64,000 bases of DNA from Spirochaetia bacterium (GCA_022482625.1 JAKVOU010000001.1:3148784-3212783), one strand, 5' to 3'; numbered from the stretch's first letter, positions 20,334 through 48,062 are shown. Made by a program: numbers and translations. The notes: generated from the letters alone by a model not told the origin.

Positions 20334-20337
20334 GCCT

Positions 20338-20411: not shown

Positions 20412-20463
20412 AACAGGAAAGTGTTTTTTACTTTCTTACTGCGCTACTTGCGCAACGCTAGTA

Positions 20464-20492
20464 TTTGTACCGCTTTTCATGGTAAGTGTCAA
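20464..20492 (-). promoter_or_regulatory. Promoter of tRNA-Arg
   Basis: On the minus strand TTGACA (20492-20487), a 17-base spacer and TACAAA (20469-20464), about 50 bases before the mature tRNA 5' end. Confidence 0.65.
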
Positions 20493-21389: not shown

Positions 21390-21773
21390 TTGAAAAACAC
21401 ACTGAAAATCCTGTTTGTATTCATTGTGGTATTTAGTATATTTGCCATAAGCTATGGATTCAGGATTGCCAATGGAAAGAAAGTTGCCTTTCGCATCAAC
21501 AACAAGTCTCCATATACGGTTCTTGATCTTGAAATATGCTTATCAACAAATCCGGAAGTAAAGACTACACAGGATACGTTGTTAGATGATTCTTTTACGA
21601 CTTTGCCATTGGATATGTCTACCGTTATAAATAGCGGAAAGTACTTTATTAATTACAAGATCAATGGTAACCAGGAAACGGAGAGGTTTGGTAACTATAC
21701 CAAAGGTTATCCCTCAGAGAGTACAGTCAATATAACCATAGGAGTGGATTATTTGCCTTTGATAGATGACTGA
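21390..21773 (+). CDS. Small exported/anchored protein, paralogue of the lipoprotein at 26203
   Basis: 127 residues from a TTG at 21390 with GGGAGG eight bases upstream; the resulting N-terminus (KNTLKILFVFIVVFSIF) is a clean signal or anchor segment. An ATG at 21342 would put charged residues before it. The rest is a small, probably beta-rich domain of unknown function. It aligns over its whole length with the protein at 26203-26601, sharing EICL, a LDM-x-V-S/N-G pair and PSESTV-x-ITI. The lipobox cysteine of that paralogue is replaced here by tyrosine, so this copy is probably membrane-anchored rather than lipidated. No database family is recognised. Confidence 0.7.
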   Translation: MKNTLKILFVFIVVFSIFAISYGFRIANGKKVAFRINNKSPYTVLDLEICLSTNPEVKTTQDTLLDDSFTTLPLDMSTVINSGKYFINYKINGNQETERFGNYTKGYPSESTVNITIGVDYLPLIDD

Positions 21774-21972
21774 AAAAGTTTTTCGATGATAGCTTTTACT
21801 CAATTGAAACTGCTATGAGTCTCTATATGACTTTTCTCTTTATGCTACCCTATCCTTGGAAATGGACGAGTCTGATATGACTTCAGGTATCTTGTTTTTC
21901 TTTCCCAAAACGGAGGGTTTAAGTTCCAAAGCTGCCTTTTTGTTTTGTATATCTCTTTCAAAATGAAGGTAT

Positions 21973-22965
21973 TCATTGCTTATCTCGCGGCATTCCTTTT
22001 GTTTTACTATCTTTTATTATTTTCAAATTTATTTGGCTCAGGACAGAAGCATTTCCCATTGTTTCGTGTTTTTGCTCATGCATTGCTGCTGTTTGTGAAG
22101 TAATGGTAGCCAAGAACATTAAAGTACAGCCGACTATTTCTCTGGAATTCAGTGTTTCCCTTAGAACAATCCAGCCGCATAAGGCAGAGAAGACAGATTC
22201 CAAACTAAGAATTAGGGTAGCTGCTACAGGATCTAATTCTTTTTGTCCTGATGTCTGTAAAGTGTAAGCAATTCCACAAGATAAGATTCCTGTATATAAA
22301 ATAGGAATACTCGCACGCATTATTGATTGTAATTCAGGATGCTCAAACATGAATGCAGCCATTATGCTTAACAACCCGCATATTGAGAATTGAAGGCAGG
22401 ATAGCTTTATGCAATCTTCCTTTGATGAATAGAAATCGATTGCGAGTATATGAATTGATGTTGTAAAAGCACAAAGTAAGACAAGAGTATCTCCAAAGCT
22501 GAGAATCAACTTTGCATCGATGCATAGCAGATACATGCCAACGGTTGCAAGAAGAATGCAACCCCATGTTTTCAGATCAATACGTTTGCCTCGAAAGCGT
22601 TCTAGGATAGGAACAATGATTATATATAGGGACGTAATGAAACCGGCTTTTCCAACCGTAGTATAGGCTATGCCTGCCTGTTGCAATGAGGCCGTGACAA
22701 AAAGGATGCTTCCGCAAATAAAACCTCCCTTGAGTAAGGAATAATTTTTTTTTGGAGAATTGCTGGATTTTGCTTTATCCCTATGGCCTTGATAATCTGT
22801 TATCAGAATTAACGGCAAGAGTACGCATGCTCCGATCAAGAACCGTACTGCATTGAATGTAAAGGGCCCTACTGATTTTGTCCCGATACTTTGGGCGACC
22901 AAAGAGGTTCCCCAGATTAGTGTTGCACTTATAAGCATGATTCCACCGATGGTTTTTTGTTGCAT
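21973..22965 (-). CDS. DMT-superfamily (EamA) transporter
   Basis: A 330-residue protein with about ten membrane helices in two EamA repeats. The first contains ATLIWGTSLVAQS and the second ends with LESVFSALCGWIVLRE, both typical of drug/metabolite transporters that export amino acids or other metabolites. A charged C-terminal tail of about 30 residues follows. It is divergent from a CGNR zinc-finger regulator at 23109, and inverted repeats in the shared control region suggest that regulator controls it. Confidence 0.9.
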   Translation of the reverse strand: MQQKTIGGIMLISATLIWGTSLVAQSIGTKSVGPFTFNAVRFLIGACVLLPLILITDYQGHRDKAKSSNSPKKNYSLLKGGFICGSILFVTASLQQAGIAYTTVGKAGFITSLYIIIVPILERFRGKRIDLKTWGCILLATVGMYLLCIDAKLILSFGDTLVLLCAFTTSIHILAIDFYSSKEDCIKLSCLQFSICGLLSIMAAFMFEHPELQSIMRASIPILYTGILSCGIAYTLQTSGQKELDPVAATLILSLESVFSALCGWIVLRETLNSREIVGCTLMFLATITSQTAAMHEQKHETMGNASVLSQINLKIIKDSKTKGMPRDKQ

Positions 22966-23043
22966 AGTCCTTGGCCTTTTAAATGTAACTGCTTTGTGGT
23001 ATAATAATGGTTACTTACGGTTGTTATTTTATGCTACCGTGAC

Positions 23044-23073
23044 GTAACTGTCAATATATATTTTGATAGTTAC
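23044..23073. promoter_or_regulatory. Inverted repeat in the DMT/CGNR divergent region
   Basis: GTAACTGTCAA (23044-23054) and TTGATAGTTAC (23063-23073), eleven-base arms with one mismatch and an 8-base AT spacer. GTAACT and GGTTAC half-sites also occur at about 22986 and 23007, flanking a TATAAT. It is a candidate operator for the CGNR regulator. Confidence 0.55.
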
Positions 23074-23108
23074 ATATGATATATTTACCTACAAAGAGAG
23101 GTGCTTAG

Positions 23109-23651
23109 GTGAAATTCCTGTGTTTAGATTTTATAAATAGCCGATGGTATATCACACATAAACCTTTTTCTGATCCTCTTGATGATTGCACGTGGTTAGC
23201 TCAATTCTGCAACAAATGGGATTTGCCTGAACTTATCCCTTCAATGCGTGGATTTGAGAAACTAATAACGTTCCGGGAATTTATGTTTCAAACTTTAATG
23301 AAAATGTGTGTTGGACGGATTGTCGGGTCTCAGGAAATACATGAACTTAATCAGATATTACTGCAGGGAACCCCTAAAAAGGTGTTGGTTGAACAAGACG
23401 GCCACTATATTCTGAAAACACAGCAGCAATCGGATGACATTGCATGGATTATGTATCAGATTGTATTGTCTTTCAGTGTGTTGATTACGGAATATCCTTT
23501 GCAATACCTAAAGAAATGCGGAAATCCAGAATGTGATTGGATATTCTATGATGACAGTAAAAGCCATACGAGAAAATGGTGCGATAACAGATGTGCAAGC
23601 CTTATGAAAGTGCGTAGATATAGGGCATCCAAAAAAAGGCAAGAGCAATGA
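23109..23651 (+). CDS. CGNR zinc-finger / ABATE-domain regulator
   Basis: A 180-residue protein starting at GTG with GAGG seven bases upstream. The N-terminal ~120 residues fit the ABATE (putative stress-induced regulator) domain. The C-terminal 45 residues carry the treble-clef zinc finger: CGNPECDWIFYDDS, then WCDNRCASLMKVRRYR, giving four cysteines and the basic VRRYR helix that contacts DNA. Here CDNRC stands where CGNR is usual. It is divergent from the DMT transporter, which it may regulate in response to an unknown small molecule. Confidence 0.85.
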   Translation: MKFLCLDFINSRWYITHKPFSDPLDDCTWLAQFCNKWDLPELIPSMRGFEKLITFREFMFQTLMKMCVGRIVGSQEIHELNQILLQGTPKKVLVEQDGHYILKTQQQSDDIAWIMYQIVLSFSVLITEYPLQYLKKCGNPECDWIFYDDSKSHTRKWCDNRCASLMKVRRYRASKKRQEQ

Positions 23652-24092
23652 TTACACAATACCTTGGACCGGTGTTGTCCGAAATAGGGTATCCTATTGG
23701 CAAAAGAAGCCGTTTCAAAAGTTCAGGTTTTTCGGCAGTTCTCTTTTGATTTATCTTGAGTTTCCTGAGCATGGAGAAGTAAAAGTGCGTTATGCTATCA
23801 ATGGATTCCCATGTATACAGACTATGTCCTGACATCCTATTGCCGGTTCAGCTGGAATTGACCGCAAGCAAAGCCGTCCTGTCCCGCTTCTTGAAAGCTA
23901 TTTGATACTTTCCTATTTGTTTTTTAGGGCGTGAGCTAAGTTCATCTAAGCAAGGGATGCTTTTATAAAACCAAGGAAAAGCGATAAACTGCTTTCGTCT
24001 TTTTGCAGATTGATGTGAAAGAGCCTGATTGATTTGCTTACGGCTTGGTTCCTTGTGGAATCGGATACTGCATCGGTTGTTTTGGAGCTTAT
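23652..24092. other. Intergenic stretch, no gene seen
   Basis: Short overlapping frames only, none with motif or ribosome binding site. I looked for cobalamin-riboswitch core elements before the CobD-like gene and found none. Confidence 0.5.
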
Positions 24093-25145
24093 ATGGATTA
24101 TCGCTTGTCAACGGAAAAAGGGGAAGAAACATACTTTGATTTTTCAGTCAATACAAACCCGTTGGGAGTAACTGATGTGCTGCGACAGGCAGGCGATGGT
24201 TTTGTTTCAAGCTTCGGGTTCTATCCTGATCCTGATTGCCGACAATTGAAAAAGGCTCTTGCAGATCGATATGGTGTACCGATGGCCTCTCTCTACTGTG
24301 GCAGTGGGGCAGATGATGTGTTCTATCGTTTGATATTGTCATTAAGGCCAAGGAAAGCCTTGGTCATCGAACCTACGTTCGAGGAATATGCCGTTGCCTT
24401 GTCGTTGGTTGACTGTGAGATTATACATTGTCAGCTGTCAATGTCAGATGGATTTTCCCTTGATATGGACCGGCTCCTCTCTTTGGCTGTACGACAGGAT
24501 ATCGTCATTGTCTGCAATCCGAATAATCCTACAGGGACACTGATACCACGGAAGGAACTGTTGGAGCTGATCAGTATCTGTGAGGCAAACGATACTGTCT
24601 GTGTCGTTGATGAATGTCTTATGGAAATGATGGAGGATTGGAGGCAGCATACCGTCAGGCAAGAGGTAGAAAACTTCTGTAATTTGGTTGTCATCGATGC
24701 CTTTACAAAGACTTATGCCCTTGCTGGTCTTCGCCTTGGCTTTGTTATCACAGGACATGAGGGCTTGGTCGAGAAGATGCAAAGACAGGGGCAGGCGTTC
24801 AATGTTTCTTCGCCTGCTCAGTTTGCCGGTATCCTGGCTCTGTCAGATGCTGCTCCGTATCTTTCCCGCACGTATGTCTTGTTGGCACAGGAACGTATGT
24901 TCTTGTCTTTATCGTTCAAAAGGCTCCATGTTCAATTTTTCCCGACTGTTGCCAATTTTTTCCTTGTGAAATCTTCTGTTGCACATTTCAATGAAAAGTT
25001 ATTGCTCTTGGGCATCAAGGCCAGGGACTGTACGAAGTTCTATGGCCTTGATGCTTCATATAGCCGTCTTGCAATCCGGACTCATGAGGAAAACATTGCC
25101 TTGGTGAAGGCGTTGGAGAAAATACTGGAAAGTTGTTGTATCTGA
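24093..25145 (+). CDS. PLP-dependent class I/II aminotransferase (CobD / HisC-like)
   Basis: About 350 residues from an ATG at 24093 with GGAG five bases upstream. The PLP fold is clear: DFSVNTNPLG at the N-terminus, YPDPDCRQLKKALA, VCNPNNPTGT, VVDECLMEM, and the Schiff-base lysine in DAFTKTYALAGLRLGF. It matches threonine-phosphate decarboxylase (CobD) and histidinol-phosphate aminotransferase relatives. The N-terminal HGG segment of classical CobD is missing; an upstream in-frame extension to 24045 does not supply it. No cobalamin or histidine genes lie nearby, so the substrate is left open. Confidence 0.82.
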   Translation: MDYRLSTEKGEETYFDFSVNTNPLGVTDVLRQAGDGFVSSFGFYPDPDCRQLKKALADRYGVPMASLYCGSGADDVFYRLILSLRPRKALVIEPTFEEYAVALSLVDCEIIHCQLSMSDGFSLDMDRLLSLAVRQDIVIVCNPNNPTGTLIPRKELLELISICEANDTVCVVDECLMEMMEDWRQHTVRQEVENFCNLVVIDAFTKTYALAGLRLGFVITGHEGLVEKMQRQGQAFNVSSPAQFAGILALSDAAPYLSRTYVLLAQERMFLSLSFKRLHVQFFPTVANFFLVKSSVAHFNEKLLLLGIKARDCTKFYGLDASYSRLAIRTHEENIALVKALEKILESCCI

Positions 25146-25269
25146 TGTTATTTTTTCTGATACTAAGAGGAATAATCGAACAATACTATCGTGTTGCATT
25201 TATATAGTTACAGACATATCATATTATAAAAGATTTATTTGTTTGCTTTTTTAATTCTGAGGTTTTGTC

Positions 25270-25776
25270 ATGCAAAGGTATTTTTGTTTTTTATTTTCCA
25301 TTCTGTTTACTGTTTTTTGCTTGCTAGGATGTTCATTGAAGGTGAGGATAACAGATATTGCAAAGGAACTTGGAATAGATGCGGTCGCAGATGGAACAAT
25401 TTGTGATGAAACTGATACTCATAGTGGAAACGGTGATGGATATACCTTTGTAAAAATAAGTTTTGACAATACTTGTGCATCTGTATTTGAATCTGCTGTT
25501 GATTCAAATTCCAATTGGAAACCTTTGCCTTTATCGTGCAACTTGCAAGAAGTGGTGTATGGACAAGGAAGACGGGGACCATATCTTACTGATACACAGG
25601 ATAATGTCTTGATGCCGTCAATTGAAAATGGATATTGGTATTTTTATGACAGGTATGAGGGTGGTGGCAACCATCATGATGATTGCACTATTCTTGTTCG
25701 TCCATCTTTCAATTTTACCATTGCGATTTATGACAAAGATGAACATTTTCTATATTTTTGCAGATACGATACATAA
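25270..25776 (+). CDS. Lipoprotein of unknown function
   Basis: 168 residues with a lipoprotein signal peptide (lipobox LLGC, cysteine at about residue 19) and GAGG seven bases before the ATG. The mature part is soluble, rich in aromatic and acidic residues towards the end (YWYFYDRYEGGG), and has no recognised domain. It would be anchored to the outer leaflet of the inner membrane or to the outer membrane. It sits in an AT-rich accessory stretch with other small exported proteins. Confidence 0.72.
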   Translation: MQRYFCFLFSILFTVFCLLGCSLKVRITDIAKELGIDAVADGTICDETDTHSGNGDGYTFVKISFDNTCASVFESAVDSNSNWKPLPLSCNLQEVVYGQGRRGPYLTDTQDNVLMPSIENGYWYFYDRYEGGGNHHDDCTILVRPSFNFTIAIYDKDEHFLYFCRYDT

Positions 25777-26202
25777 ATAAAAATGGCCTCTATAAAAGAC
25801 TGAGTGAAAGCAACCTATAACAATTTGTTTTTCTTTATTACTTGGCTAATAGATTTACTGATATCATAGGTATCTTTCAGTGCCAATAAAAATATACATC
25901 TTATATTACCTGCTGATTATGAATACTTGACAGGGTATTTTAATAAACTTTTACTAATAAATTGTCATATGATTATATTTAGATTCAATTTAATATTTGT
26001 AAATATGTATATATTGTGTAAATAAATATATCATCAAAAATAGTAAGAAATACACTTTTATTACTACAAAATATATTATACAATTATTTATGCTTGATAT
26101 GACATGATATGTCAGAAAGCGGTGTAACTGGGAGAGACGTTGTTTTATGCAGGAACTTTCACCGTGGATTGATTATCCTGGCTTAGGAGAAAAAAAACTT
26201 CT
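25777..26202. other. AT-rich gap without genes
   Basis: Very AT-rich, no frame worth calling. A small palindrome GACATGATATGTC occurs near 26101-26113, about 90 bases before the next start codon. It presumably holds the promoter of the lipoprotein gene at 26203. Confidence 0.5.
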
Positions 26203-26601
26203 ATGAGAAAATCATATGGAATTCTAGGTGTAGTCCTAGTGCTACTTTGCAGCATATTGGTAGGATGCAGTTTTAACATAGTCAATGCAAAGACGGTAAC
26301 TTTCAATATAAAGAATACTGGTTCAGATGCTGTAACTAATGTCGAGATTTGCCTTACGAAAGATGCTGATACGAAAGTTACATCTTCGGCGACTATAACT
26401 GGTCACGGAGGAACGCTTTCACTTTCTCTAGATATGACTTCCGTTGTAAGTACTGGACAATATTACCTTACTTGCGATGTTGGAAATATTTTCAAGGACA
26501 AGACTTTTGGTAGTTATACTCTCGGTTCTCCATCCGAAAGTACTGTTGCAATAACAATTTCTTCTGATGCTGATCCTGTTATTGCCGTTGATGGTGATTG
26601 A
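26203..26601 (+). CDS. Small lipoprotein, paralogue of the protein at 21390
   Basis: 132 residues with a lipoprotein signal (lipobox LVGC, cysteine about residue 22). The mature domain of about 110 residues is Ser/Thr-rich and probably all-beta. It aligns end to end with the 21390-21773 product, with FNIKN, VEICL, LSLDMTSVVSTGQYYL and PSESTVAITI in the same order. No known family is recognised. AGGAG lies 12 bases before the ATG and a perfect stem-loop terminator follows the gene, so it appears to be a monocistronic unit. Confidence 0.75.
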   Translation: MRKSYGILGVVLVLLCSILVGCSFNIVNAKTVTFNIKNTGSDAVTNVEICLTKDADTKVTSSATITGHGGTLSLSLDMTSVVSTGQYYLTCDVGNIFKDKTFGSYTLGSPSESTVAITISSDADPVIAVDGD

Positions 26602-26642
26602 GATCAGGGCTCATTTTATTGACAGTTGGTTCCATGCAAAAA

Positions 26643-26670
26643 ATTCCATCCTAAACAGGATGGAATTTTT
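26643..26670. terminator. Bidirectional intrinsic terminator
   Basis: ATTCCATCCT-AAAC-AGGATGGAAT, ten perfect pairs, with T5 on the plus strand and T6 on the minus strand. It lies between the convergent lipoprotein and secreted-protein genes. Confidence 0.92.
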
Positions 26671-26699
26671 ATTATCTGTTTGATTTGTAGGGTGTTTGT

Positions 26700-27245
26700 T
26701 TAGTCAGCTGTGTAGGTAACCGTTACGTCACTCTGGTACTCACCTGCATCAGGATTGGTAGCAGCTGCCCAGTAGAGGTAGAACTCTGCCACATGGGTGT
26801 CCTTCTGGTAGCCTACGGGAAGCGTAACTGTGGTGGGCGTGGAAATCTTTGTGGAGCTGTCGGAAGGGTTGAGATATTGCACGCTGACAGCCTGTTCCTC
26901 GTGGGTTGTCTTGTCGCTCCTAGTGGTATAAAAGCTGGTGGCCGTGACACCTATGGAGAGGCTGGTAGCGGAGGTCTGGTTGCCGGAGGCCTTGAGGATG
27001 AAGTCCTTTGTGGAGCCTGCGGAAGCCAGCGCGTTGTCATCCAGGGTGATGGAGTAAGGGTTCTTTGAGCTCGTGTAGTCGGAAAGGTTGACCTCTGTGC
27101 TGTCTGATGGTTCATAATAGAGTGCTGTCGTAATTGCTTCGGTCGGAACCTTGGTGGCAAGTTTGACATAGTTGCTTGTGTCTGTTGCGAAGGTGGCGGC
27201 TGCTGCAAGTGTTGCTACTGCGATGGCTGTGATAAACTTTTTCAT
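26700..27245 (-). CDS. Secreted Ser/Thr-rich protein, pilin- or spore-coat-U-like fold possible
   Basis: 181 residues with a cleavable signal peptide (MKKFITAIAVATLAAAATFA). The mature part is rich in Ser, Thr, Asp and Ala, lacks cysteine, and ends in alternating strands (WAAATNPDAGEYQSDVTVTY). That ending resembles the C-terminal donor-strand regions of secreted pili/coat U proteins (…AGxYxDxVTVT…), but this is pattern similarity only. It has a near-consensus promoter, so it may be well expressed. It is probably a periplasmic or surface structural protein. Confidence 0.7.
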   Translation of the reverse strand: MKKFITAIAVATLAAAATFATDTSNYVKLATKVPTEAITTALYYEPSDSTEVNLSDYTSSKNPYSITLDDNALASAGSTKDFILKASGNQTSATSLSIGVTATSFYTTRSDKTTHEEQAVSVQYLNPSDSSTKISTPTTVTLPVGYQKDTHVAEFYLYWAAATNPDAGEYQSDVTVTYTAD

Positions 27246-27295
27246 TTGGTTGATTCTCCCTATTTCTTTTTTTAGTTTTTCTTGTTTACGATTTG

Positions 27296-27324
27296 AATAT
27301 ACAGCGACTTATAACTTATGTCAA
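27296..27324 (-). promoter_or_regulatory. Near-consensus sigma-70 promoter of the secreted protein gene
   Basis: On the minus strand TTGACA (27324-27319), a 17-base spacer and TATATT (27301-27296), about 50 bases before the start codon. The rest of the 27246-27666 gap is AT-rich and shows no gene. Confidence 0.8.
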
Positions 27325-27597
27325 TAGTTGCAAGAAAAAATATTTAAAATTTTTTTTATTATTGGTAATTAAGCCATAATTTTAACATATTTCCTATAAA
27401 AAGAAGTGAACAACCTTTATTGTGGTAGTATATCTTTGCTATGTGTTAACATAAGTATATACTATCCAAATATGACATTTTCGTAATAATGTAAAACTTT
27501 TTGAATATGCTATCCAATATAAGAATTTAGCAAAGATATCAGTTCCTTTTGTCTGTTGCGGTGGTCAGGTGAAGATGAATTTGACGTACTGATAAAT

Positions 27598-27633
27598 TCA
27601 GCCCAGACCTATCAAGCTATAAGTCTGGGCTGA
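27598..27633 (-). terminator. Stem-loop after the 3-hydroxyacyl-CoA dehydrogenase gene
   Basis: TCAGCCCAGAC pairs perfectly with GTCTGGGCTGA around a 14-base loop, about 35 bases past the stop. The minus-strand tail ATTTATC is only weakly T-rich. Confidence 0.6.
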
Positions 27634-27666
27634 TGAATTGAGGCGTTGAAAGCTAGTTGTTGCTTG

Positions 27667-28614
27667 TTAGTCGTTTCCTTTTTCAAAGGATGCAAGCAGT
27701 TTGCTTTGTGCCATGAACTTGGCGTCCCTGTTTTTTATTGCTTCTTTGTCTTTGCCTTTATGGTAGTCATAGAACCCTTCTTGACTTTTTACTCCCAGTT
27801 TGCTTTCTGCAACCAGCTTGTTGAACAATGGCTGAGGCTGTTGGTCTGCACTGAGATCGGCATACAGGTACTTTGCGACATTATGGAAAACATCCAGACC
27901 TCCCAAGTCAGTGACTTCAAAAGGGCCGAGACAGGCATACCTGAAACCGAGTCCGTATTTCATGCAATCATCGACATCCTTGAAAGATCCTATACCGTTC
28001 TCGACGATGTGGATTGCTTCTCTCAATACTGCAAGCTGCAGACGGTTTGCAATGAAACCCTTTGCATCCTTATGTACCATGATTGGTTTCTTTCCCAGGG
28101 ACAGGGATAGGTCATATACCTGTTTGGCCGTTGCCTCACTGGTTTTTTCTCCTTTTATCACTTCGATGAGGGGGATCAGATGTGGAGGGTTGAACCAGTG
28201 CATACCGACGAAACGTTCTGGATGACTTACTGCAGTAGCCAGTTTTGTGATGGAAAGGCCGGATGTATTTGTGGCAAGTATTGCATCTTCCCTTGCAAGG
28301 TCACTGATTTGTTTCCAGTAGACCGATTTGATTGTCAGATCTTCTGCAATTGACTCGACGACAAGGTCACATGCGGCAAAACTGCCAAGATCTTTCGTGT
28401 AAGTAAGCTTTTTGAGAATGGCATCTTTATCTTTTTGATCAAGTTGGCCTTCTGCGATTTTTGTTTCCAAAGCCGTATATATTTGTTCTTTGCTTTTTAT
28501 TCCTGTTGCTTCATGTCGATAGACAACGGTGACATGGTAACCTTTTTCTGCAAATATCAGGGCCATGGAGGTGCCCATGGTACCGGCTCCTGCCAATGCA
28601 ATGTCTTTTATCAT
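27667..28614 (-). CDS. 3-hydroxyacyl-CoA dehydrogenase
   Basis: A 315-residue enzyme with the N-terminal NAD-binding motif GAGTMGTSMA, the catalytic region NTSGLSITKLA and VGMHWFNPPHLIPLIEV, and the C-terminal helical domain starting near GFIANRLQ. The catalytic histidine is in MHWFNPP. It oxidises or reduces 3-hydroxyacyl-CoA with NAD(P) in the cytoplasm, as in beta-oxidation or butyrate formation. No thiolase, crotonase or acyl-CoA dehydrogenase genes are adjacent, so its pathway is not fixed by context. AAGGAG precedes the ATG. Confidence 0.92.
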   Translation of the reverse strand: MIKDIALAGAGTMGTSMALIFAEKGYHVTVVYRHEATGIKSKEQIYTALETKIAEGQLDQKDKDAILKKLTYTKDLGSFAACDLVVESIAEDLTIKSVYWKQISDLAREDAILATNTSGLSITKLATAVSHPERFVGMHWFNPPHLIPLIEVIKGEKTSEATAKQVYDLSLSLGKKPIMVHKDAKGFIANRLQLAVLREAIHIVENGIGSFKDVDDCMKYGLGFRYACLGPFEVTDLGGLDVFHNVAKYLYADLSADQQPQPLFNKLVAESKLGVKSQEGFYDYHKGKDKEAIKNRDAKFMAQSKLLASFEKGND

Positions 28615-38118: not shown

Positions 38119-38218
38119 TGTTTGTAAATATCAGAAAGGGCATACTTCTCAAATGTATGCAGCTTAGGAATCAAAGCTTCTGGATTTACAGAATTATAAA
38201 AAAATATACTTCTTAAAT
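38119..38218 (-). repeat. Decayed CRISPR repeats beyond the array
   Basis: Two 36-base segments at 38119-38154 (27 of 36 matching the repeat) and 38183-38218 (about 23 of 36) lie 64 and 66 bases apart and in phase with the array. They look like old repeats with their spacers at the leader-distal end. Confidence 0.65.
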
Positions 38219-38248
38219 AAAGATACCCGTGGGCAATGATACAATGCT

Positions 38249-41200
38249 GGTTATAGGTATTAGAAAGAACATACTACTCAAATCCACATTCGTGGGGGTG
38301 TTTCTCTACCAAAACGTTAAAAAACATACTACTCAAACCTGTCGGACATGTCAAGCAAAAAAATAAAGGTTTATAGGTATTAGAAAGAACATACTACTCA
38401 AACATAAAAGAGAACCTGCAGAAACTTGAAGAGGGTTTATAGGTATTAGAAAGAACATACTACTCAAACAGAGCTACTGTCCTAGGTCTTGGCATCAAAG
38501 GTTTATAGGTATTAGAAAGAACATACTACTCAAACCTTCTCCAGACGCATTGCCGTCTTGCGGATGGTTTATAGGTATTAGAAAGAACATACTACTCAAA
38601 CAGGGGCTGCAACAGAGTATTTTGAGCCGGTGGTTTATAGGTATTAGAAAGAACATACTACTCAAACTCGTGCGAGGTGGGAGACCATCTAGCAAAGGGT
38701 TTATAGGTATTAGAAAGAACATACTACTCAAACGATTAGCAGAACCATTGATACTTCCGCAGCGGTTTATAGGTATTAGAAAGAACATACTACTCAAACT
38801 TATTGCATCATTGCCTGCATTGGCACCTGGGTTTATAGGTATTAGAAAGAACATACTACTCAAACGGATGAGATTACCTCATTCCTGGCCGAGAAGGTTT
38901 ATAGGTATTAGAAAGAACATACTACTCAAACAAGAATTAGAAAGTGACGGCACTTCCACTTGGTTTATAGGTATTAGAAAGAACATACTACTCAAACTAG
39001 CTTTCTCTTTGTCACGAGCGGCCTGAGGGTTTATAGGTATTAGAAAGAACATACTACTCAAACGGACAAGGCGAGCTCGCATCAGGGGAACGAGGTTTAT
39101 AGGTATTAGAAAGAACATACTACTCAAACGCTACCTGGACTGGCTGGAGGGCAACGGCAGGTTTATAGGTATTAGAAAGAACATACTACTCAAACTTTCG
39201 ATCGGGACCTGGGACACTTCCACATGGTTTATAGGTATTAGAAAGAACATACTACTCAAACCGATAATTGGGACCGATGTAGCGGTAGAACGGTTTATAG
39301 GTATTAGAAAGAACATACTACTCAAACGAATCTAAAAAAATTCGCACCTGCAGGGTTTATAGGTATTAGAAAGAACATACTACTCAAACAGCATACCATG
39401 GATAAGTGCCACAGCCTGTGGTTTATAGGTATTAGAAAGAACATACTACTCAAACAAAGGGACGGCGAATCATTTGGTGGGATAGGGTTTATAGGTATTA
39501 GAAAGAACATACTACTCAAACCGCACTCCTGACTGCCACCGCCACCGGCACGGTTTATAGGTATTAGAAAGAACATACTACTCAAACGTCAAGGCTTGGG
39601 TTGACAACCCATTCAGAGGTTTATAGGTATTAGAAAGAACATACTACTCAAACTTTTGCATTTGCAGGATTATCAATGAGACCGGTTTATAGGTATTAGA
39701 AAGAACATACTACTCAAACATCCTTTCACCTTCTGGAACAATCTTAATAGGTTTATAGGTATTAGAAAGAACATACTACTCAAACTTATGTACTGAGTAG
39801 GGCTTTTTGCCTGACGGTTTATAGGTATTAGAAAGAACATACTACTCAAACAGGTCATAGCTCCTTGTGTCGTCAACTACAGGTTTATAGGTATTAGAAA
39901 GAACATACTACTCAAACGGATACCTCAGCCCTATATGAGCCGCGAATGGTTTATAGGTATTAGAAAGAACATACTACTCAAACCCTGGGCATAGGCAATG
40001 CTCCCGATGTCGGGGTTTATAGGTATTAGAAAGAACATACTACTCAAACATCTACGCTACGCTGCACATCATTAGTCTGGGTTTATAGGTATTAGAAAGA
40101 ACATACTACTCAAACAACTCTGTCCCCATCGTTTTTAACGATGTAGGTTTATAGGTATTAGAAAGAACATACTACTCAAACATAGGGTCGACACAGCAGG
40201 TTGCCGGATTCGGTTTATAGGTATTAGAAAGAACATACTACTCAAACAGGTCCAAGGTCACATTGTCGCAATGCTTGGGTTTATAGGTATTAGAAAGAAC
40301 ATACTACTCAAACTAATTGCGACTCCGGGTGAAACTGTTGATTGGTTTATAGGTATTAGAAAGAACATACTACTCAAACGCAGCGTGCCTGTGTATCTCG
40401 CATGTCCATGGTTTATAGGTATTAGAAAGAACATACTACTCAAACCCATCATGGATGTAGATTAAATCGTCGCCAGGTTTATAGGTATTAGAAAGAACAT
40501 ACTACTCAAACGCAACACCTTTATACGACACAGACGTGATAGGTTTATAGGTATTAGAAAGAACATACTACTCAAACCTTCTTGACCTCAATGGATTCCA
40601 GGTGCGTGGTTTATAGGTATTAGAAAGAACATACTACTCAAACGGAGGTGACTGGTCAAAGGATGGCATAAAGGGTTTATAGGTATTAGAAAGAACATAC
40701 TACTCAAACACAGACATGGTCTTTGACACAATTTTGCTGGGTTTATAGGTATTAGAAAGAACATACTACTCAAACTCCCCATCGACATCCATATCATCAT
40801 AATAGGGTTTATAGGTATTAGAAAGAACATACTACTCAAACTGAAGATAGAGCTTTTGGCAAATGGGGTAAGGTTTATAGGTATTAGAAAGAACATACTA
40901 CTCAAACCCCCATGTTTCGCAATCCGTTTTGTCGGCCGGTTTATAGGTATTAGAAAGAACATACTACTCAAACGAAGCAGTTACCTCAAAGCCCAAGGAT
41001 GGAGGTTTATAGGTATTAGAAAGAACATACTACTCAAACGCGTCGGGTGGATTGCCACCCTTCGGTGCTGGTTTATAGGTATTAGAAAGAACATACTACT
41101 CAAACAGGACATGAGGGACACATTCAAGTTGCGCTGGTTTATAGGTATTAGAAAGAACATACTACTCAAACGACACCATCAGGTCAGTACAACGCCAGGG

Positions 41201-41633
41201 GGGTTTATAGGTATTAGAAAGAACATACTACTCAAACTCCGAAGAGTGTCATAGGCTCTTGGGAACGGGTTTATAGGTATTAGAAAGAACATACTACTCA
41301 AACTGTATTATGACGTATTAAATGACAATTACTGGTTTATAGGTATTAGAAAGAACATACTACTCAAACACAATCCTCTTGTCGGCAACTGCTATCAGTG
41401 GTTTATAGGTATTAGAAAGAACATACTACTCAAACGAACCTCCTTGTAGCGGTTGTTCATAATGCGGTTTATAGGTATTAGAAAGAACATACTACTCAAA
41501 CCGACTGTAATGCAGTGTACAAACCCTGTGAGGTTTATAGGTATTAGAAAGAACATACTACTCAAACTATGTGACGGATTTTGACGAGGAGAACGGCGGT
41601 TTATAGGTATTAGAAAGAACATACTACTCAAAC
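38249..41633 (-). CRISPR. Type II-A CRISPR array, 50 uniform repeats plus two imperfect ones
   Basis: The 36-base repeat reads GGTTTATAGGTATTAGAA then AGAACATACTACTCAAAC on the plus strand. Fifty copies, apparently identical, start every 66 bases from 38368 to 41598, giving 30-base spacers; one interval is 62 bases with a 26-base spacer (39328-39353). Two imperfect repeats precede them: 38249-38283 (one base deleted, last base changed) and 38303-38338 (only the 3' half conserved). Spacers all look different. Transcription is on the minus strand from the leader next to csn2, so the imperfect repeats lie at the old, leader-distal end. The crRNA repeat is GTTTGAGTAGTATGTTCTTT in its first 20 bases and pairs with the tracrRNA at 47969. 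Confidence 0.99.
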
Positions 41634-41790
41634 TGAACATCTGTTAACTGTAATAGATGCGAGAGTGACAACAAACACATCTATCTGAAGCAAACAATTT
41701 AGTCCAGCTTGAGTGGTTTCCATAATTGAATCCTTTATTAATCATTTCCTACAATTGATATTATATCATAAACAGTAAAAAAATCCTACA
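41634..41790 (-). promoter_or_regulatory. CRISPR leader
   Basis: 157 AT-rich bases between the csn2 stop and the first repeat, in the usual leader position of type II-A loci. A TATAAT (minus strand, 41765-41760) could be the -10 of the array promoter; a clear -35 is lacking. The last leader bases before the repeat are AACAGATGTTCA. Confidence 0.75.
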
Positions 41791-42462
41791 CTAAAACTGA
41801 CAAAAATCTGTATCTATCACAACTTTCTGGAATAGTTCTTTATCAATAGAAATATCTTTGGCTTCTATAAACATTATAGCAATTGATTCCTTGATGCAAC
41901 TTTCTATCAGTTTAGTAATTTCATTCATAGGTAAAAAATTCATAAGATTGACAAAACAGAATAAAGAATAGTGCATGTATTTATTATATGATAAAACTGA
42001 ATCAAAAATATGTTCAACCAAGGAATTACCGAGAGTGTCGACATGAAATGACAAGGCTTTGATTATTGCGTTAATAGGAATTTCTTCTACAGGAGTAATA
42101 GCACCAGGAAAATCATATGCGAGGTCAATAGCATATGATTTAAGCATGCTTATTAACTTGTTTGTTGCTTCATAGTGGTATTCGTTTATGGCGTCTTCTT
42201 CCACTTGTTTATTGATTGCATTTAATATTATTTTATCATTCGGATCAAAGGCTAGGGGGTCAATGATTACTTTTAGATTTTTATCAAGTGGCATTATTTT
42301 TTCTTCTTCAGATAAAACAAATAAACCAGAATTTCCTTCACTTTGATTTTTTAGCTCAGTAAGAACTTGCGAAAACACAGAAGGTGCTTCTATGACGAGC
42401 AGAAGAGATTTTCTTTCTATATTAGAAAATTTAAAACATAATTCAGGATGTACTAAGTTCAT
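41791..42462 (-). CDS. csn2: CRISPR-associated protein Csn2 (type II-A)
   Basis: A 223-residue protein. The N-terminal part LLLVIEAPSVFSQVLTEL, FVLSEEEKIMPLDKN and VIIDPLAFDPNDKII matches the short Csn2 family, followed by the helical region and the C-terminal strand SIAIMFIEAKDI. Csn2 forms a ring-shaped tetramer that slides on DNA ends and is needed for spacer acquisition with Cas1-Cas2 and Cas9. Its start overlaps the cas2 stop by 4 nt. Its presence assigns the locus to subtype II-A. Confidence 0.9.
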   Translation of the reverse strand: MNLVHPELCFKFSNIERKSLLLVIEAPSVFSQVLTELKNQSEGNSGLFVLSEEEKIMPLDKNLKVIIDPLAFDPNDKIILNAINKQVEEDAINEYHYEATNKLISMLKSYAIDLAYDFPGAITPVEEIPINAIIKALSFHVDTLGNSLVEHIFDSVLSYNKYMHYSLFCFVNLMNFLPMNEITKLIESCIKESIAIMFIEAKDISIDKELFQKVVIDTDFCQF

Positions 42463-42764
42463 AGGAAAACTACTTTATCAATAGTATTGATGATGTCAGA
42501 TTTTGACTTTCCGACGATATATTCCATTTCGTTGTATTCTTTTTCGGAAAGAACCAATACTTGTACAATTCCTTCTTCAAGTTTATAATTTCTTAGCTTT
42601 TCTATTACTAATTTCGCTGAGGAAGGATTTAAGACAATTTTTGAATAGATTGATTCCTGCATCATAATAAAACCTTCCGTTATTAGCCATTTCCTAAACT
42701 TTCTATACGTCCTTTTTTGATTGCTAGTCAGTATCGGTAAATCAAACATAATTAAGATTCTCAT
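42459..42764 (-). CDS. cas2: CRISPR-associated endonuclease Cas2
   Basis: About 101 residues from the ATG at 42764, giving the standard beginning MRILIMFDLP with the conserved Asp of Cas2. The frame also holds an ATG at 42782 and a TTG at 42788, which would overlap cas1. The ferredoxin-like fold is indicated by KRTYRKFRKWLITEGFIMMQ and the strand VQVLVLSEKEY. It bridges Cas1 dimers in the spacer-integration complex. Confidence 0.93.
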   Translation of the reverse strand: MRILIMFDLPILTSNQKRTYRKFRKWLITEGFIMMQESIYSKIVLNPSSAKLVIEKLRNYKLEEGIVQVLVLSEKEYNEMEYIVGKSKSDIINTIDKVVFL

Positions 42765-42774
42765 TATTTTTTTC

Positions 42775-43650
42775 TCATTCATATTCAAAAAATTTGATTA
42801 GATTGATATTTTTGGATTGCAAAGCTTGGAATAAACTTGTGCAATAAATTTCAGTGGCATTGAGAAAATCATAATGCCTGTCATTTATTTTTAATTTACA
42901 ATTGAATATACCCAGCAATTCATGCTTCAAAGTCGTTGTAAATTCATCGAAAGGCATCATATAAAAGACAATCTGATCGACTAATGGTCGAAAAGGTTCC
43001 ATCAAATCACAACCAAGATTAAAAGTATTATGTACATTTGAATGGCAAATTCCTAATTCCGTCAAATATCCATTCTTTACGATTTCTCGATTGAACACTG
43101 ACAATAAGATCCCATAACCGTAATTCAAAGCTGCATTAATGGGGGTATCTGTATGTCTGGAAAAATTATTTCCAAATAGAAGATGGAAATATTTTTTTGC
43201 AACTTGTGCTTCCATTTTTGATTTGTCTCCAAGTAACACGCTTTCTGCTTTTGCTTTAAAATATCCTAGGTCGTCAATATGAAGCCGGGCAACCATTTCT
43301 TGTTGTTTCTTTATCTTTTGTCTTACAATTTCTGTCCAGACCAAAGTCTTTGCATTAATAGTCCAATTGATTTGTACTAAGATTCGTTCATTTGTTGTTT
43401 GGGCACAATAAAATGGTTTTAATTCGGAGCAGGGATTGCGAGTACTATCACAGAAAATAGTATCAATACCTCGATTTGCTAACTCCTGTAACAAAACTAC
43501 AGTAAGGCTGACTGCGGTACTTTCAATTATCAACACAGAAATTTCATCAAGAAAAACTTTTTGTATACCATCACTTGTCCGTATGACAAGGTAATTCATC
43601 CTATACTCAAGTTTTGACTGATGACTGATTACAATAGTTCTGAAGCTCAT
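42775..43650 (-). CDS. cas1: CRISPR-associated integrase Cas1 (type II)
   Basis: A 291-residue protein with the type II Cas1 layout. An N-terminal beta domain comes first, then a helical domain with the metal ligands E147 (KMEAQVAKKYF), H203 (ELGICHSN) and E218 (NLGCDLMEPFRPLVD). It inserts new spacers at the leader-repeat junction together with Cas2. The start overlaps the cas9 stop by 4 nt. Confidence 0.96.
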   Translation of the reverse strand: MSFRTIVISHQSKLEYRMNYLVIRTSDGIQKVFLDEISVLIIESTAVSLTVVLLQELANRGIDTIFCDSTRNPCSELKPFYCAQTTNERILVQINWTINAKTLVWTEIVRQKIKKQQEMVARLHIDDLGYFKAKAESVLLGDKSKMEAQVAKKYFHLLFGNNFSRHTDTPINAALNYGYGILLSVFNREIVKNGYLTELGICHSNVHNTFNLGCDLMEPFRPLVDQIVFYMMPFDEFTTTLKHELLGIFNCKLKINDRHYDFLNATEIYCTSLFQALQSKNINLIKFFEYE

Positions 43651-46600
43651 GGGACTTTTATCTCGGTTCGTTTTTCATATATCCCTGTAGCTGATTGATA
43701 GATAAACGTAATAGAATCTTGAAGGTTCCTATTAATTTTTGAACTTTCAATTGCTTTTAAGCCCCCTATTAAACTTAAATCAATAGTTCCTTGTCTACAA
43801 GAAAAGAGCAGTAGCAATTGTTCAAGGAGGTTTGCTTGAGTAACTATATTGGATGAAACGAATTCTGATAAATTTTTTTCTAAAAATAATTTATTTGAAA
43901 CCGTAACTTTGTTTTTATATATAGCATTCGTACATTTAGATAACAATGTATGATAAAGTTCTATATTTCTTTCTGGTGAAAGGCGATACTGATATGCTTT
44001 CAATTCAAGAAGTTTCTTGTTTTCTGGTGTCATTTTATCTTTTTTTGTTTCAATTGGTTTTATGTATGTAAGATATTTTTCTAAGTAATAACTGTATTCA
44101 TATGAATTGGAATCAAGGATTAGAGGTACCGCAGTTTTTAAAGCAATTTTGTTTCCAGAGGCGCCAGAAATTTCATAGATAAAACCCTTGTAGCGTATTT
44201 TTGTGTTGATTAAGATTTTCGGCAAGATGATTACAGGATCTTTAAGGCCTAACGTTTCAGTACAATATTGCTGCAAGGACATTTTACCACTGTCAATTTG
44301 TGAAACTAACCAAATAGGGACATCTGAGAATGTTTTTATTCTTTTCCCTTTTGCCGTATGTTCAACCAAGAAGAAATAAGCCTTCCCTGTTTTATTGTAT
44401 CCACCATATTTTTCAATCTTACAGAGGCGTTTATCTGAGGATTTAATTGGTAATACATCATTATTTGTGCCATGCCTAACTATGGTTTGATCAGAAATAG
44501 CTCCTTTCTTTTGAAAACATTGTCTGGTAAAAAGTATATCATTACGCTCCATGAACTTTCGTATAGTACGTATGGTTCCTGTTTCTGGATAGGCTTGTAA
44601 ATTGTTTTTTGCTTTGATTCTGGCATCTCTGTTTGTATCTCTTAGCCAAGCAACTTGATTATTCCGTTCAATATCGTAGAAAAATAATTTGCCAAGATTA
44701 TAAGAATTCTCATGTAAGGAAACAGCATCGGTTTTGTTTCGTTTCGAAAAGATATATCTGGGATCGTTTGTAAACTTTGTGTAATATGTATTACCGACTA
44801 CGATATTCAAATATGCATCCTTTGCATGATGCAAATCATTTACAATTCTACTTTTATGCAGTTCAAATGTATTTCTGAAATCAGTTACGTTTCTTGCTTT
44901 TGAATATACTATGACAGAATTCGGACACATTTTATTCAAAAGTCTTCCAATTTCCTTTGTACTCTGCCTGGTTTCAACGATTTGACGAGCAATAAAATTT
45001 TCGAACTCATCATCAGAAAATTGGGTTGTCCTCGTTAACCTTGTATACTTTTCCTTGGAAATCAACTTGTTGTCAAGCAATAATTTCCAAAAAACTTGGC
45101 AATGTTGTTGAATCGTAGAATCAAGTGGGTAACTGTCTGATTTTTTCCCATTTTCGTTGCTAAGCACGAGTACGCGATTATCCAAACTGTCATCCTTGAC
45201 TTTACTTTGTGGATAAATATGATCAATATCGAAACGTTTGCTGCCTGATAACAATTGTTGCAGATCAATTTTTTCATTTGTATACATGCATCTACCCAAT
45301 TGTGTATAGTAAAGATACAATTTTGTTTTTCGCAGGTTATCATCAGATTGTGATTCAATGGATGTAAGAAGTTCTGTTGCATCTGGGTTATCAGTCAGAT
45401 TCTTTAATTTGGTTCGAATATCTTCCTTTCTGGAAACAGTCCTTTTCCCTTTCTTTTCATCTTCTCTAGCCATCTCAATGAAAATTTTTTCGGGATCAAC
45501 ACCCATGGTTTGCCGAATTTCCTTGGAAACCAGCAACGTTTGCCAAATTGCACGTTTCACAGAAGGGGAAACAAGCAATGGCTCAACAAGGGATTCATAA
45601 GACCATGTGTAGTCTTGTTCTGTTTTTCTTCGTTCTTCTTCGACCGATTTAGTAATGGTATATTTATTGCTGAGCAATTTCATCAAATTGGCAGATGTTT
45701 CATGCATTAGCGTGAGAATTGATTTGCATTCACCGGTTGCCTTGTCAACATCATACATTTCTGTTAAAAACTTTTTTGATAAATTTCCCCAGCCGGAATA
45801 ACTTTTGCATTTATTTAGGATATCTTTTTGTTGTGTGGTTGTAAGTTTGTCCTTATATTTTTCAGAAAGTTTTTTCCCTAATAGGTCCTGTCCTTCACTA
45901 AAAATTGTTGCCCATTCAATAATTTCTTCAACTTCATCCTTAGATAAGATATTGCTTTCCAAATAAGGGGAGAAATCGATGTAGCCTCTGAGGACTGTCT
46001 TGATGTTTTGATCTATCCCTGTAATTTCTAATTCTTCATCTTTTCTATAATAGCCTCGGATAATCAAAAATTTCCTTATCCCTTTTTGTGTAACAGTCTT
46101 TTGCTTTTTAAACAGATTAAAAAGCTGTTCCTTGGCTTCAATTGTCAAAGCAATTCCATTGATACGAAGATTATTCAGTTCATTCAACAAAGAAAATTCA
46201 CTGTAAGCCAATGAATTTTTCGGTAAAACATTTTCAGCGGGAAGATAAGTACACTTTCGTGTCATCTTTCGGATAAAAGCATTACCACATGCAGGTAAAT
46301 CAACTTGTTCCTTAAATTTCCATGGTCTGATAGGGCTTTTGCCATCATCTTTCCTGACCATCCAACTGAATTTTTGATATTCTTTGCCGGAGCCATCATT
46401 TTCAACCAAAGGTCCGACATAGTAAGGTATTCTGAAATTCATCAGCGCAATAATTTTTTTATTGACTGAATAACCTTCATCATCTGTGGAATTCAAAAAA
46501 GGCAGGTAAGTTGCTGCATTAAGAAGGATTTCCTGCAATTCAGCTTGATTCAATTGGTAAGGAATTGTCCTGTTGGATATATCTTTAGCTTTTGGTAGCA

Positions 46601-47873
46601 TGAGGTTGTTTTCAAGTCTATTTTTTACAGTATTGAGCAAAACATCGGAATTGTCGGAAACATAATCTTTGGGGAAAAAGATACCTTTGAAATATTTGTT
46701 TACTGCTTCCATGGAACATTTTGATTTTGTAGGTTTCTTTTTCTCGAATTTAGGTTTTATATGTTTTCCGTTTTTTTCTATAACAAGGCCATGTCCAATG
46801 TAATCGAGGTAATTGTTTTCTATATTCGTTGCATTGAAAGCCTCTTCATATTTGTCTGGATGATATTTTCTCATCAGCTGTTTCAAATCGGCAAGATCTT
46901 TCCTGTGCTGTTCATAGGCATCAACTTTTGCATATGACAGATACTTTTGCCCATGAAGCATCTCATCAAGCAGAGACCAATTATAAATTCGTTTTAGGGT
47001 AAGAATTACTTGAAAAAAATCTTCTCCTACTTGGCTACAGAGTTTATCTTCAATTGTTTCATAAGTACTGCTTTTGAATTCAAAGTCTTTGATTTCCTTC
47101 TCTTCTATGTCATAATCAGGAAATAGCTTATCCAATTTTGTTTTGTGTCCAAGCAAAGCTTTTGCAATTTCAGTACAAACTTGTTTTTGGAGCTTATTGT
47201 CAGAATCTGAAATTTCAAACAAAGAGATGAGCGTTTTTTGTTTGTCGTACATTGAGTGATTCACAAGGGTGTTTTTTATTTCATCAATACCCTGCGGGTA
47301 TTGTAAGTTTATTTCCAGTACATCATTGAATAGTCTTTGCAATTCAAGAAATTGAGGTATAACATTTTTTGTACTTTCCAAGGACTGGTTTTCAAAGATA
47401 AAATGTCCCCGATGTTTCAGGATATGGTGAAGTGCAAGATACACTAACCTGATGTCATGTGGATTTTTATTATCAATCAAATCTTTCCTGAGATGGTAAA
47501 TCGTAGGATAAGTTTTATGGAATTGTATATCGGAGTATTTTTTATCATTGAATAGGGTATTCTTGTCCTTACTATTTTTATCATCAAGACAATATTTGCT
47601 TTCTGCCAGGCGAGCGAAGAAATTTGCGTCAGTCTTTTTGATTTCTTCTTCAAACAATTCATCCAGCAAATCGAGTCTGGTATGTTTTCTGAGTGTCCTT
47701 CTTCTTGCTGCACGATAAGCTCTTCTATCTTCTGCGGAATTTGCACTTTCAAAAAGACGGATACCCCATAGTGCTTTTCCTTTTTTTCTTTCAATAGTAT
47801 AAGCTTCATCCGTAACAGCCCAGCCAACACTTCCAGTTCCACAATCAAGACCTAAATAGTATTTTTCTGACAT
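43647..47873 (-). CDS. cas9: Cas9 RNA-guided endonuclease (type II-A, 1408 residues)
   Basis: RuvC-I holds D10 in YLGLDCGTGSVGWAV. The arginine-rich bridge helix follows (DRRAYRAARRRTLRK, about 49-63), then a long recognition lobe to about 760. RuvC-II has E800 in IFIEMARED, the HNH domain H885 in FDIDHIYPQS, and RuvC-III H1016/D1019 in LHHAKDAYLN. The C-terminal ~350 residues form the PAM-interacting region. All catalytic residues are present, so both DNA strands should be cut. Size is like the long II-A Cas9s (about 1370-1400). GAGGAG stands five bases before the ATG. It heads the cas9-cas1-cas2-csn2 operon and is divergent from the tracrRNA gene. Confidence 0.99.
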   Translation of the reverse strand: MSEKYYLGLDCGTGSVGWAVTDEAYTIERKKGKALWGIRLFESANSAEDRRAYRAARRRTLRKHTRLDLLDELFEEEIKKTDANFFARLAESKYCLDDKNSKDKNTLFNDKKYSDIQFHKTYPTIYHLRKDLIDNKNPHDIRLVYLALHHILKHRGHFIFENQSLESTKNVIPQFLELQRLFNDVLEINLQYPQGIDEIKNTLVNHSMYDKQKTLISLFEISDSDNKLQKQVCTEIAKALLGHKTKLDKLFPDYDIEEKEIKDFEFKSSTYETIEDKLCSQVGEDFFQVILTLKRIYNWSLLDEMLHGQKYLSYAKVDAYEQHRKDLADLKQLMRKYHPDKYEEAFNATNIENNYLDYIGHGLVIEKNGKHIKPKFEKKKPTKSKCSMEAVNKYFKGIFFPKDYVSDNSDVLLNTVKNRLENNLMLPKAKDISNRTIPYQLNQAELQEILLNAATYLPFLNSTDDEGYSVNKKIIALMNFRIPYYVGPLVENDGSGKEYQKFSWMVRKDDGKSPIRPWKFKEQVDLPACGNAFIRKMTRKCTYLPAENVLPKNSLAYSEFSLLNELNNLRINGIALTIEAKEQLFNLFKKQKTVTQKGIRKFLIIRGYYRKDEELEITGIDQNIKTVLRGYIDFSPYLESNILSKDEVEEIIEWATIFSEGQDLLGKKLSEKYKDKLTTTQQKDILNKCKSYSGWGNLSKKFLTEMYDVDKATGECKSILTLMHETSANLMKLLSNKYTITKSVEEERRKTEQDYTWSYESLVEPLLVSPSVKRAIWQTLLVSKEIRQTMGVDPEKIFIEMAREDEKKGKRTVSRKEDIRTKLKNLTDNPDATELLTSIESQSDDNLRKTKLYLYYTQLGRCMYTNEKIDLQQLLSGSKRFDIDHIYPQSKVKDDSLDNRVLVLSNENGKKSDSYPLDSTIQQHCQVFWKLLLDNKLISKEKYTRLTRTTQFSDDEFENFIARQIVETRQSTKEIGRLLNKMCPNSVIVYSKARNVTDFRNTFELHKSRIVNDLHHAKDAYLNIVVGNTYYTKFTNDPRYIFSKRNKTDAVSLHENSYNLGKLFFYDIERNNQVAWLRDTNRDARIKAKNNLQAYPETGTIRTIRKFMERNDILFTRQCFQKKGAISDQTIVRHGTNNDVLPIKSSDKRLCKIEKYGGYNKTGKAYFFLVEHTAKGKRIKTFSDVPIWLVSQIDSGKMSLQQYCTETLGLKDPVIILPKILINTKIRYKGFIYEISGASGNKIALKTAVPLILDSNSYEYSYYLEKYLTYIKPIETKKDKMTPENKKLLELKAYQYRLSPERNIELYHTLLSKCTNAIYKNKVTVSNKLFLEKNLSEFVSSNIVTQANLLEQLLLLFSCRQGTIDLSLIGGLKAIESSKINRNLQDSITFIYQSATGIYEKRTEIKVP

Positions 47874-47933
47874 AAAAACTCCTCAATATGATTTTGATTC
47901 TAACATATTTGTCTTGAAATACAAACAAAATAC

Positions 47934-47962
47934 TTGACAATTTCTAATAGGTATTCTAGGGT
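47934..47962 (+). promoter_or_regulatory. tracrRNA promoter
   Basis: TTGACA (47934-47939), a 17-base spacer and TAGGGT (47957-47962), which keeps the three most conserved -10 bases. The predicted start falls at about 47969, exactly where the anti-repeat begins. Confidence 0.65.
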
Positions 47963-47968
47963 TACAGA

Positions 47969-48062
47969 TAGAAAGAACATACGTTCAAATAAAAATTAAT
48001 TCAAATCGCCCTAGGGCTCGCATTGTGCGAATAAGGTTTGCTGAAAAGCAGACCTATTTTTT
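47969..48062 (+). ncRNA. tracrRNA of the type II-A system
   Basis: Bases 47969-47982 (TAGAAAGAACATAC) are complementary to 14 bases of the crRNA repeat. After a small bulge TCAAAT (47985-47990) pairs with the repeat's first six bases, one pair being G-U. This gives the usual upper stem, bulge and lower stem of a crRNA:tracrRNA duplex. Downstream are a short hairpin GCCC-TA-GGGC, a second TCGCA-TTG-TGCGA, and a terminator hairpin AGGTTTGCT-GAAA-AGCAGACCT followed by TATTTTTT. Predicted length is about 94 nt. It is transcribed away from cas9 and is required for crRNA processing by RNase III and for Cas9 activity. Confidence 0.9.

What the first reader, a model, noticed from the sequence alone, without database searches (positions are those of the whole stretch)
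38249..48062. Complete type II-A CRISPR-Cas locus with a 1408-residue Cas9 and a 50-repeat array
All parts are visible: cas9 with intact RuvC and HNH residues (D10, E800, H885, D1019), cas1, cas2, csn2, leader, a long uniform array and a tracrRNA. The repeats look identical over 3.3 kb and spacers are all different, which points to a recently active acquisition system. The locus is clearly more AT-rich than its flanks, which fits horizontal acquisition.
Basis: partly seen in the sequence, partly recalled or inferred. Interest (0 to 1): 0.65.

Follow-up and report, generated by a model that had tools for sequence, protein, structure and literature searches.

The report
Intact Cas9 immunity, possibly frozen memory
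A spirochaete-family bacterium carries a complete, ordinary Cas9 (type II-A) CRISPR immune locus with 49 stored spacers, but one spacer matches the bacterium's own threonine-synthesis gene, and the short DNA signal that normally marks where new spacers are added is missing.

Summary
The window carries a complete type II-A CRISPR-Cas locus: cas9 (1408 aa, catalytic residues intact), cas1, cas2, csn2, 50 letter-identical 36-nt repeats with 49 unique spacers, and a divergent tracrRNA with a terminator. The host is inferred to belong to the Sphaerochaetaceae. The nearest solved Cas9 is FrCas9.

(1) The leader ends in ATGTTCA; of 58 related II-A arrays, 51 end in GAG and 4 in TTGGG. GAG occurs nowhere in this 157-nt leader, so insertion at the first repeat is probably impaired now, or obeys another signal. 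(2) Spacer S37 matches the host's own thrA 30/30. Its 3' flank is GCCT; the opposite side reads CATA, fitting FrCas9's NNTA PAM, so it may be a self-derived spacer inserted backwards and harmless. (3) Four degenerate repeats extend the array's old end to 38119. (4) AT-richness also marks cas9 in relatives, and the nearest Cas9s lie in the same family at about 42% identity: no donor or date.

No convincing outside protospacer was found. The genome also carries I-C and III-A systems. An ordinary new member of a known kind with two testable oddities.

The parts
43647..47873 (-). cas9, 1408 aa, RuvC and HNH residues intact
42775..43650 (-). cas1 (type II class), 291 aa; E147/H203/E218 conserved in 14 sequences
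42459..42788 (-). cas2, 109 aa
41791..42462 (-). csn2, 223 aa (short form)
41634..41790 (-). leader, 157 nt; ends ATGTTCA next to the first repeat, no GAG; TGATATAAT extended -10-like sequence inside
38368..41633 (-). CRISPR array: 50 identical 36-nt repeats (GTTTGAGTAGTATGTTCTTTCTAATACCTATAAACC in crRNA sense), 49 unique spacers
38303..38338 (-). degenerate repeat, 13 mismatches
38248..38283 (-). degenerate repeat, 3 mismatches
38183..38218 (-). degenerate repeat, 13 mismatches
38119..38154 (-). degenerate repeat, 9 mismatches; old end of the array
39196..39225 (-). spacer S37, 30/30 match to the host's own thrA at G000:C1:169173-169202
39984..40013 (-). spacer S25, weak candidate match (25/30, last 15 nt exact) to a phage terminase gene, flank AGTA
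47969..48061 (+). tracrRNA (ends approximate): anti-repeat 47969-47990, two small hairpins, terminator hairpin 48034-48055 plus T run

Best explanation
This is a chromosomal type II-A CRISPR-Cas locus of a Sphaerochaetaceae bacterium. Cas9 with a crRNA:tracrRNA duplex cuts DNA that matches a spacer beside a 3' PAM. Cas1-Cas2-Csn2 with Cas9 once added the 49 spacers at the csn2 side. Shown by sequence: all genes intact, array, tracrRNA, self-matching spacer, missing leader motif. Inferred: (a) interference is functional (about 0.75); (b) the PAM resembles the NNTA of FrCas9 (about 0.5); (c) S37 came from the host chromosome and is tolerated because the side that the crRNA needs has no PAM (about 0.6), perhaps because the spacer was inserted backwards (about 0.35); (d) acquisition at the first repeat is now weak, misdirected or lost because the leader-anchoring sequence is gone (about 0.55). 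The overall figure is for the locus and its general mode of action.
For: All four II-A genes intact and above the curated cut-offs; Cas9 and Cas1 catalytic residues conserved; 50 perfect repeats; tracrRNA folds with the repeat, z -8.9, with terminator; same layout as FrCas9; full-length match to FrCas9 including the PAM-interacting domain. Leader: GAG end in 51 of 58 relatives and absent here, motif required elsewhere. Self spacer: 30/30, chance about 3e-10, no near copy in 60 relatives, PAM-like CATA on the opposite side only.
Against: No expression data. No convincing outside protospacer, so the PAM rests on homology, one weak match and one post hoc reading. All 50 repeats are identical, so any loss of acquisition must be recent. 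II-A leader ends vary (third group with only CG), so this Cas1-Cas2 may read another signal.
Confidence: 0.85

Rival explanations
1. Fully active system whose Cas1-Cas2 recognises a different leader end; acquisition at the first repeat goes on normally.
For: Cas1, Cas2 and Csn2 intact; 50 identical repeats and 49 unique spacers; Cas1 only 47-48% identical to its nearest relatives, so it could have changed specificity.
Against: Nearest relatives with both similar and different repeats keep GAG or a one-letter variant; GAG absent from all 157 nt.
Confidence: 0.35
2. Interference is off (unexpressed cas9, or an anti-CRISPR in the genome), which is why a perfect self spacer is tolerated.
For: S37 matches a chromosomal gene 30/30; blocking of Cas proteins is a recognised route to tolerance.
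Against: Intact Cas9 and guide RNA; no NNTA beside the guided end of the target, so no block is needed if that is the PAM. Expression and anti-CRISPR genes were not tested.
Confidence: 0.2
3. The locus was recently acquired from another phylum.
For: AT-rich against flanks; absent from three genomes held of the genus; flanking genes not adjacent in a relative.
Against: Nearest Cas9s are in the same family plus one Cloacimonadota bin, with long branches; cas9 is AT-rich in a related genus too; no close relative in 84,980 species.
Confidence: 0.25
4. S37 has a regulatory role on thrA (Cas9 binding without cutting).
For: Perfect match kept in an old part of the array (position 37 of 49).
Against: A full-length match favours cutting if a PAM is present; the site lies inside the coding region; no NNTA on the guided side.
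Confidence: 0.03

Closest known systems
FrCas9 type II-A system of Faecalibaculum rodentium (PDB 9JWK; PAM NNTA)
   Same: Full-length Cas9 homology including the PAM-interacting domain; tracrRNA divergent upstream of cas9, crRNA collinear with cas genes.
   Different: Distant in sequence; different repeat; PAM here unmeasured.
Type II-A loci of Sphaerochaetaceae genus g3, e.g. Sphaerochaeta sp. S2 (L100, G066, G070, G058)
   Same: Same gene order and protein sizes; Cas9 42%, Cas1 47-48%, Cas2 52% identical.
   Different: Their leaders end TTGAG or TTGAT, here TTCA; different repeat; shorter leader (98-99 v 157 nt).
Treponema denticola type II-A (Cas9 1395 aa, Csn2 224 aa)
   Same: Spirochaete, II-A, short Csn2, GTTTGAG repeat start (PMC4607530).
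   Different: Different repeat; T. denticola Cas9 itself was not compared here.
Sphaerochaeta globus type II-C
   Same: Same bacterial family, Cas9-based.
   Different: II-C: Cas9 1179 aa and no csn2.

Membership tests
CRISPR-Cas type II | Cas9 with RuvC and HNH nuclease domains | tested here: met
   Pfam and NCBIfam matches, catalytic residues invariant
CRISPR-Cas type II | tracrRNA with anti-repeat next to a CRISPR array | tested here: met
   47969-48061; joint fold z -8.9; terminator
CRISPR-Cas subtype II-A | csn2 in the operon with cas9-cas1-cas2 | tested here: met
   TIGR01866 128 bits, cut-off 35; same strand and order
CRISPR-Cas subtype II-A | 36-nt repeats with about 30-nt spacers | tested here: met
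   50 repeats, 48 spacers of 30 nt
II-A leader groups 1-3 (PMC5382924; common, not defining for II-A) | Leader end ATTTGAG, CTRCGAG or CG next to GTTT | tested here: not met
   Leader ends ATGTTCA; no GAG in 157 nt
FrCas9-like PAM class | 5'-NNTA-3' PAM | tested here: inconclusive
   One weak protospacer with AGTA; self target fits only on the opposite side, CATA
CRISPR-Cas type II | DNA interference and spacer acquisition in the cell | not testable with these tools
   Needs an experiment

The most novel reading that the evidence does not exclude
A type II-A system with an intact effector whose array is a frozen memory: the leader-anchoring sequence was lost recently, so it interferes but no longer inserts at the first repeat; or else its Cas1-Cas2 has moved to a leader signal not described for II-A. 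It also carries a perfect self spacer made harmless by inverted insertion.
Probability: 0.3. Interest if true: 0.45.

Novelty: new member of a known kind. Interest (0 to 1): 0.3.

Why it matters
It adds a divergent FrCas9-related Cas9 (best identity 45%) from a little-studied family, with its own guide RNA and array, and so a candidate for PAM screening. A natural loss of the leader anchor beside 50 intact repeats would test whether that motif is needed for acquisition outside streptococci. The thrA spacer offers a natural test of how self-derived spacers survive.

Tried and rejected
A first genome search used a guessed repeat pattern and found nothing, as it was not this repeat. Array against phages and plasmids: only chance matches. 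Array against relatives and family: apart from self, only weak hits; S38 fell in a non-phage gene, S49 in a phosphate-dikinase-like gene, S32 is simple sequence. Five degenerate spacer patterns in viral contigs: none. Terminase-guided phage loci: no further match. 1072 spacers of relatives against the phage loci: none. Overlap between spacers of the host's three CRISPR systems, to read the PAM: nothing longer than an 11-nt match. A hidden repeat in the leader, or leader similarity to relatives: no hidden repeat, similarity not above shuffles. Cas9 exceeds the length limit for structure prediction.

Full report
OBSERVATION. The locus is real and complete. On the minus strand lie cas9 (43647-47873, 1408 aa), cas1 (42775-43650), cas2 (42459-42788) and csn2 (41791-42462). 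Pfam and NCBIfam assign each above curated cut-offs: Cas9 TIGR01865 at 870 bits, type II Cas1 at 277, Csn2 at 128. Cas1 keeps E147, H203 and E218. The array at 38368-41633 holds 50 repeats without a mismatch and 49 different spacers, 48 of 30 nt and one of 26 nt. Beyond it four degenerate repeats continue in register (38119, 38183, 38248, 38303; 3-13 mismatches). The boundary is abrupt: 50 perfect units abut an old, eroded stretch.

GUIDE RNA. On the plus strand between cas9 and the next gene, 47969-47990 is complementary to the crRNA repeat and is followed by two small hairpins and an intrinsic terminator (48034-48055 plus a T run; 2 terminator-like sites found, 0.2 expected). Repeat and tracrRNA joined by GAAA fold as a standard Cas9 guide (z -8.9). 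The layout, with tracrRNA divergent and upstream of cas9 and the array collinear with the cas genes, is that described for FrCas9 (PMC8931148).

PLACE AMONG KNOWN CAS9s. The best solved match is 9JWK, which PMC13052146 names as FrCas9. It is also the only solved Cas9 whose sequence aligns to the C-terminal, PAM-interacting part at 1e-10. A single-sequence scan of 84,980 species found no close relative; a profile scan found 410 relatives, the best 80 at 35-44%. The tree puts the window's Cas9 with those of Sphaerochaetaceae genus g3 and a Cloacimonadota bin (SH-aLRT 97), on a long own branch (0.75). The family is inferred to be Sphaerochaetaceae: contig G010:C46 of the same family has the length (136137) of a Sphaerochaeta sp. 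Phil3 contig.

HORIZONTAL ORIGIN. The locus is AT-rich (31-34% v 46-48%), but cas9 of genus g3 is also AT-rich against its flanks (39% v 43-47%), and the spacers here are 49% GC. Three other genomes held of the genus gave no cas9 at 1e-50; in one, the two flanking genes are 15.7 kb apart with unrelated metabolic genes between them. This fits gain here or loss elsewhere. No donor or date follows.

SELF SPACER. S37 (39196-39225) matches the host chromosome 30 of 30 at G000:C1:169173-169202, inside an aspartokinase/homoserine dehydrogenase gene followed by a threonine synthase gene. The chance of such a match is about 3e-10. No copy within 3 mismatches exists in 60 relatives, 3 of them of the genus, so the spacer most likely came from this species' own chromosome (inference). 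The 3' flank that the crRNA would need is GCCT. Read on the other strand, the flank is CATA, which fits NNTA. A spacer taken next to a proper PAM but inserted backwards would look like this and would be harmless. TA at those positions occurs at about 5% of sites, and this side was examined after the fact, so it is suggestive only. Lack of a PAM is a recognised reason for tolerance (PMC6990116).

OUTSIDE TARGETS. No convincing protospacer was found in phage, plasmid, viral or family genomes. The best is S25: 25 of 30 with the last 15 nt exact in a terminase gene of a phage-like contig of a related genome, flank AGTA. About 0.9 matches this good are expected by chance in the bases searched (my estimate), so it is a candidate only.

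LEADER. In 58 related arrays the leader ends in GAG in 51, in TTGGG in 4 and otherwise in 3 (one row re-read for a repeat boundary off by one; a few rows are the same locus fetched twice). Published work names ATTTGAG (87 of 167 loci), CTRCGAG (55) and CG (25) as II-A leader ends (PMC5382924), and reports that the last 10 leader bp are necessary and sufficient to direct integration, with mutation there dramatically impairing it (PMC6895254). Here the leader ends ATGTTCA; GAG does not occur in its 157 nt, and the gap between csn2 and the array is longer than in 15 relatives (39-116 nt). The leader shows no significant similarity to relatives' leaders and no hidden repeat. Insertion at the first repeat is therefore predicted to be impaired or to follow another signal. 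Because all 50 repeats are still identical, any loss would be recent.

MECHANISM. Shown by sequence: intact genes, array, tracrRNA, self match, leader end. Inferred: transcription of the array from the extended -10-like sequence in the leader, processing with tracrRNA, PAM-dependent cutting by Cas9, past acquisition at the csn2 side. Not shown: expression, PAM, present acquisition.

CONTEXT. The genome carries two further systems: I-C with 177 repeats at C1:1935388-1947007 (Cas1c, Cas4, Cas7, Cas8c, Cas5c) and III-A with 23 repeats at C1:192462-194174 (Cas10/Csm1, Csm3). No II-A spacer shares more than 11 nt with theirs.

VERDICT. An ordinary, complete type II-A system, new as a sequence but not as a kind. 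A possibly frozen leader and a probably harmless self spacer are the points worth testing.

Noticed in passing
G000:C1:1935388-1947007 and cas genes to about 1952900 (L208): The same genome carries a type I-C system with a 177-repeat array (166 distinct of 176 spacers); a block of three spacers is repeated at 2714-3407 of L208.
   Followed up: partly
G000:C1:183551-194174 (L207): The same genome carries a type III-A system (Cas10/Csm1, Csm3, Cas1) with a 23-repeat array, about 14 kb beyond the thrA gene that spacer S37 matches.
   Followed up: partly
L062/L063 (genome G133, C1:260073-262511 and 301719-303473): In a related genome with the published T. denticola repeat, cas9 is split by an insertion of about 39 kb between the RuvC-II and HNH parts, and an ORF joins the start of cas1 to the end of cas2; the array of 5-6 repeats remains.
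   Followed up: partly
39328-39353: Spacer S35 is 26 nt instead of 30; it contains a run of seven T.
   Followed up: no
38119-38338: Four degenerate repeats in register at the array's old end; a strongly decayed copy (38303) lies between a nearly intact one (38248) and the intact array.
   Followed up: partly
20001-28000: A second AT-rich stretch (38-40% GC) next to a tRNA gene at 20338-20411; genes look ordinary (permease-like, CGNR zinc finger, aminotransferase-like).
   Followed up: no
L054 (G045:C30): A 19-kb phage-like contig in a related genome with a large terminase and apparent portal and head genes; relatives with 59-65% identical terminases in IMG/VR contigs and in three family genomes.
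   Followed up: partly
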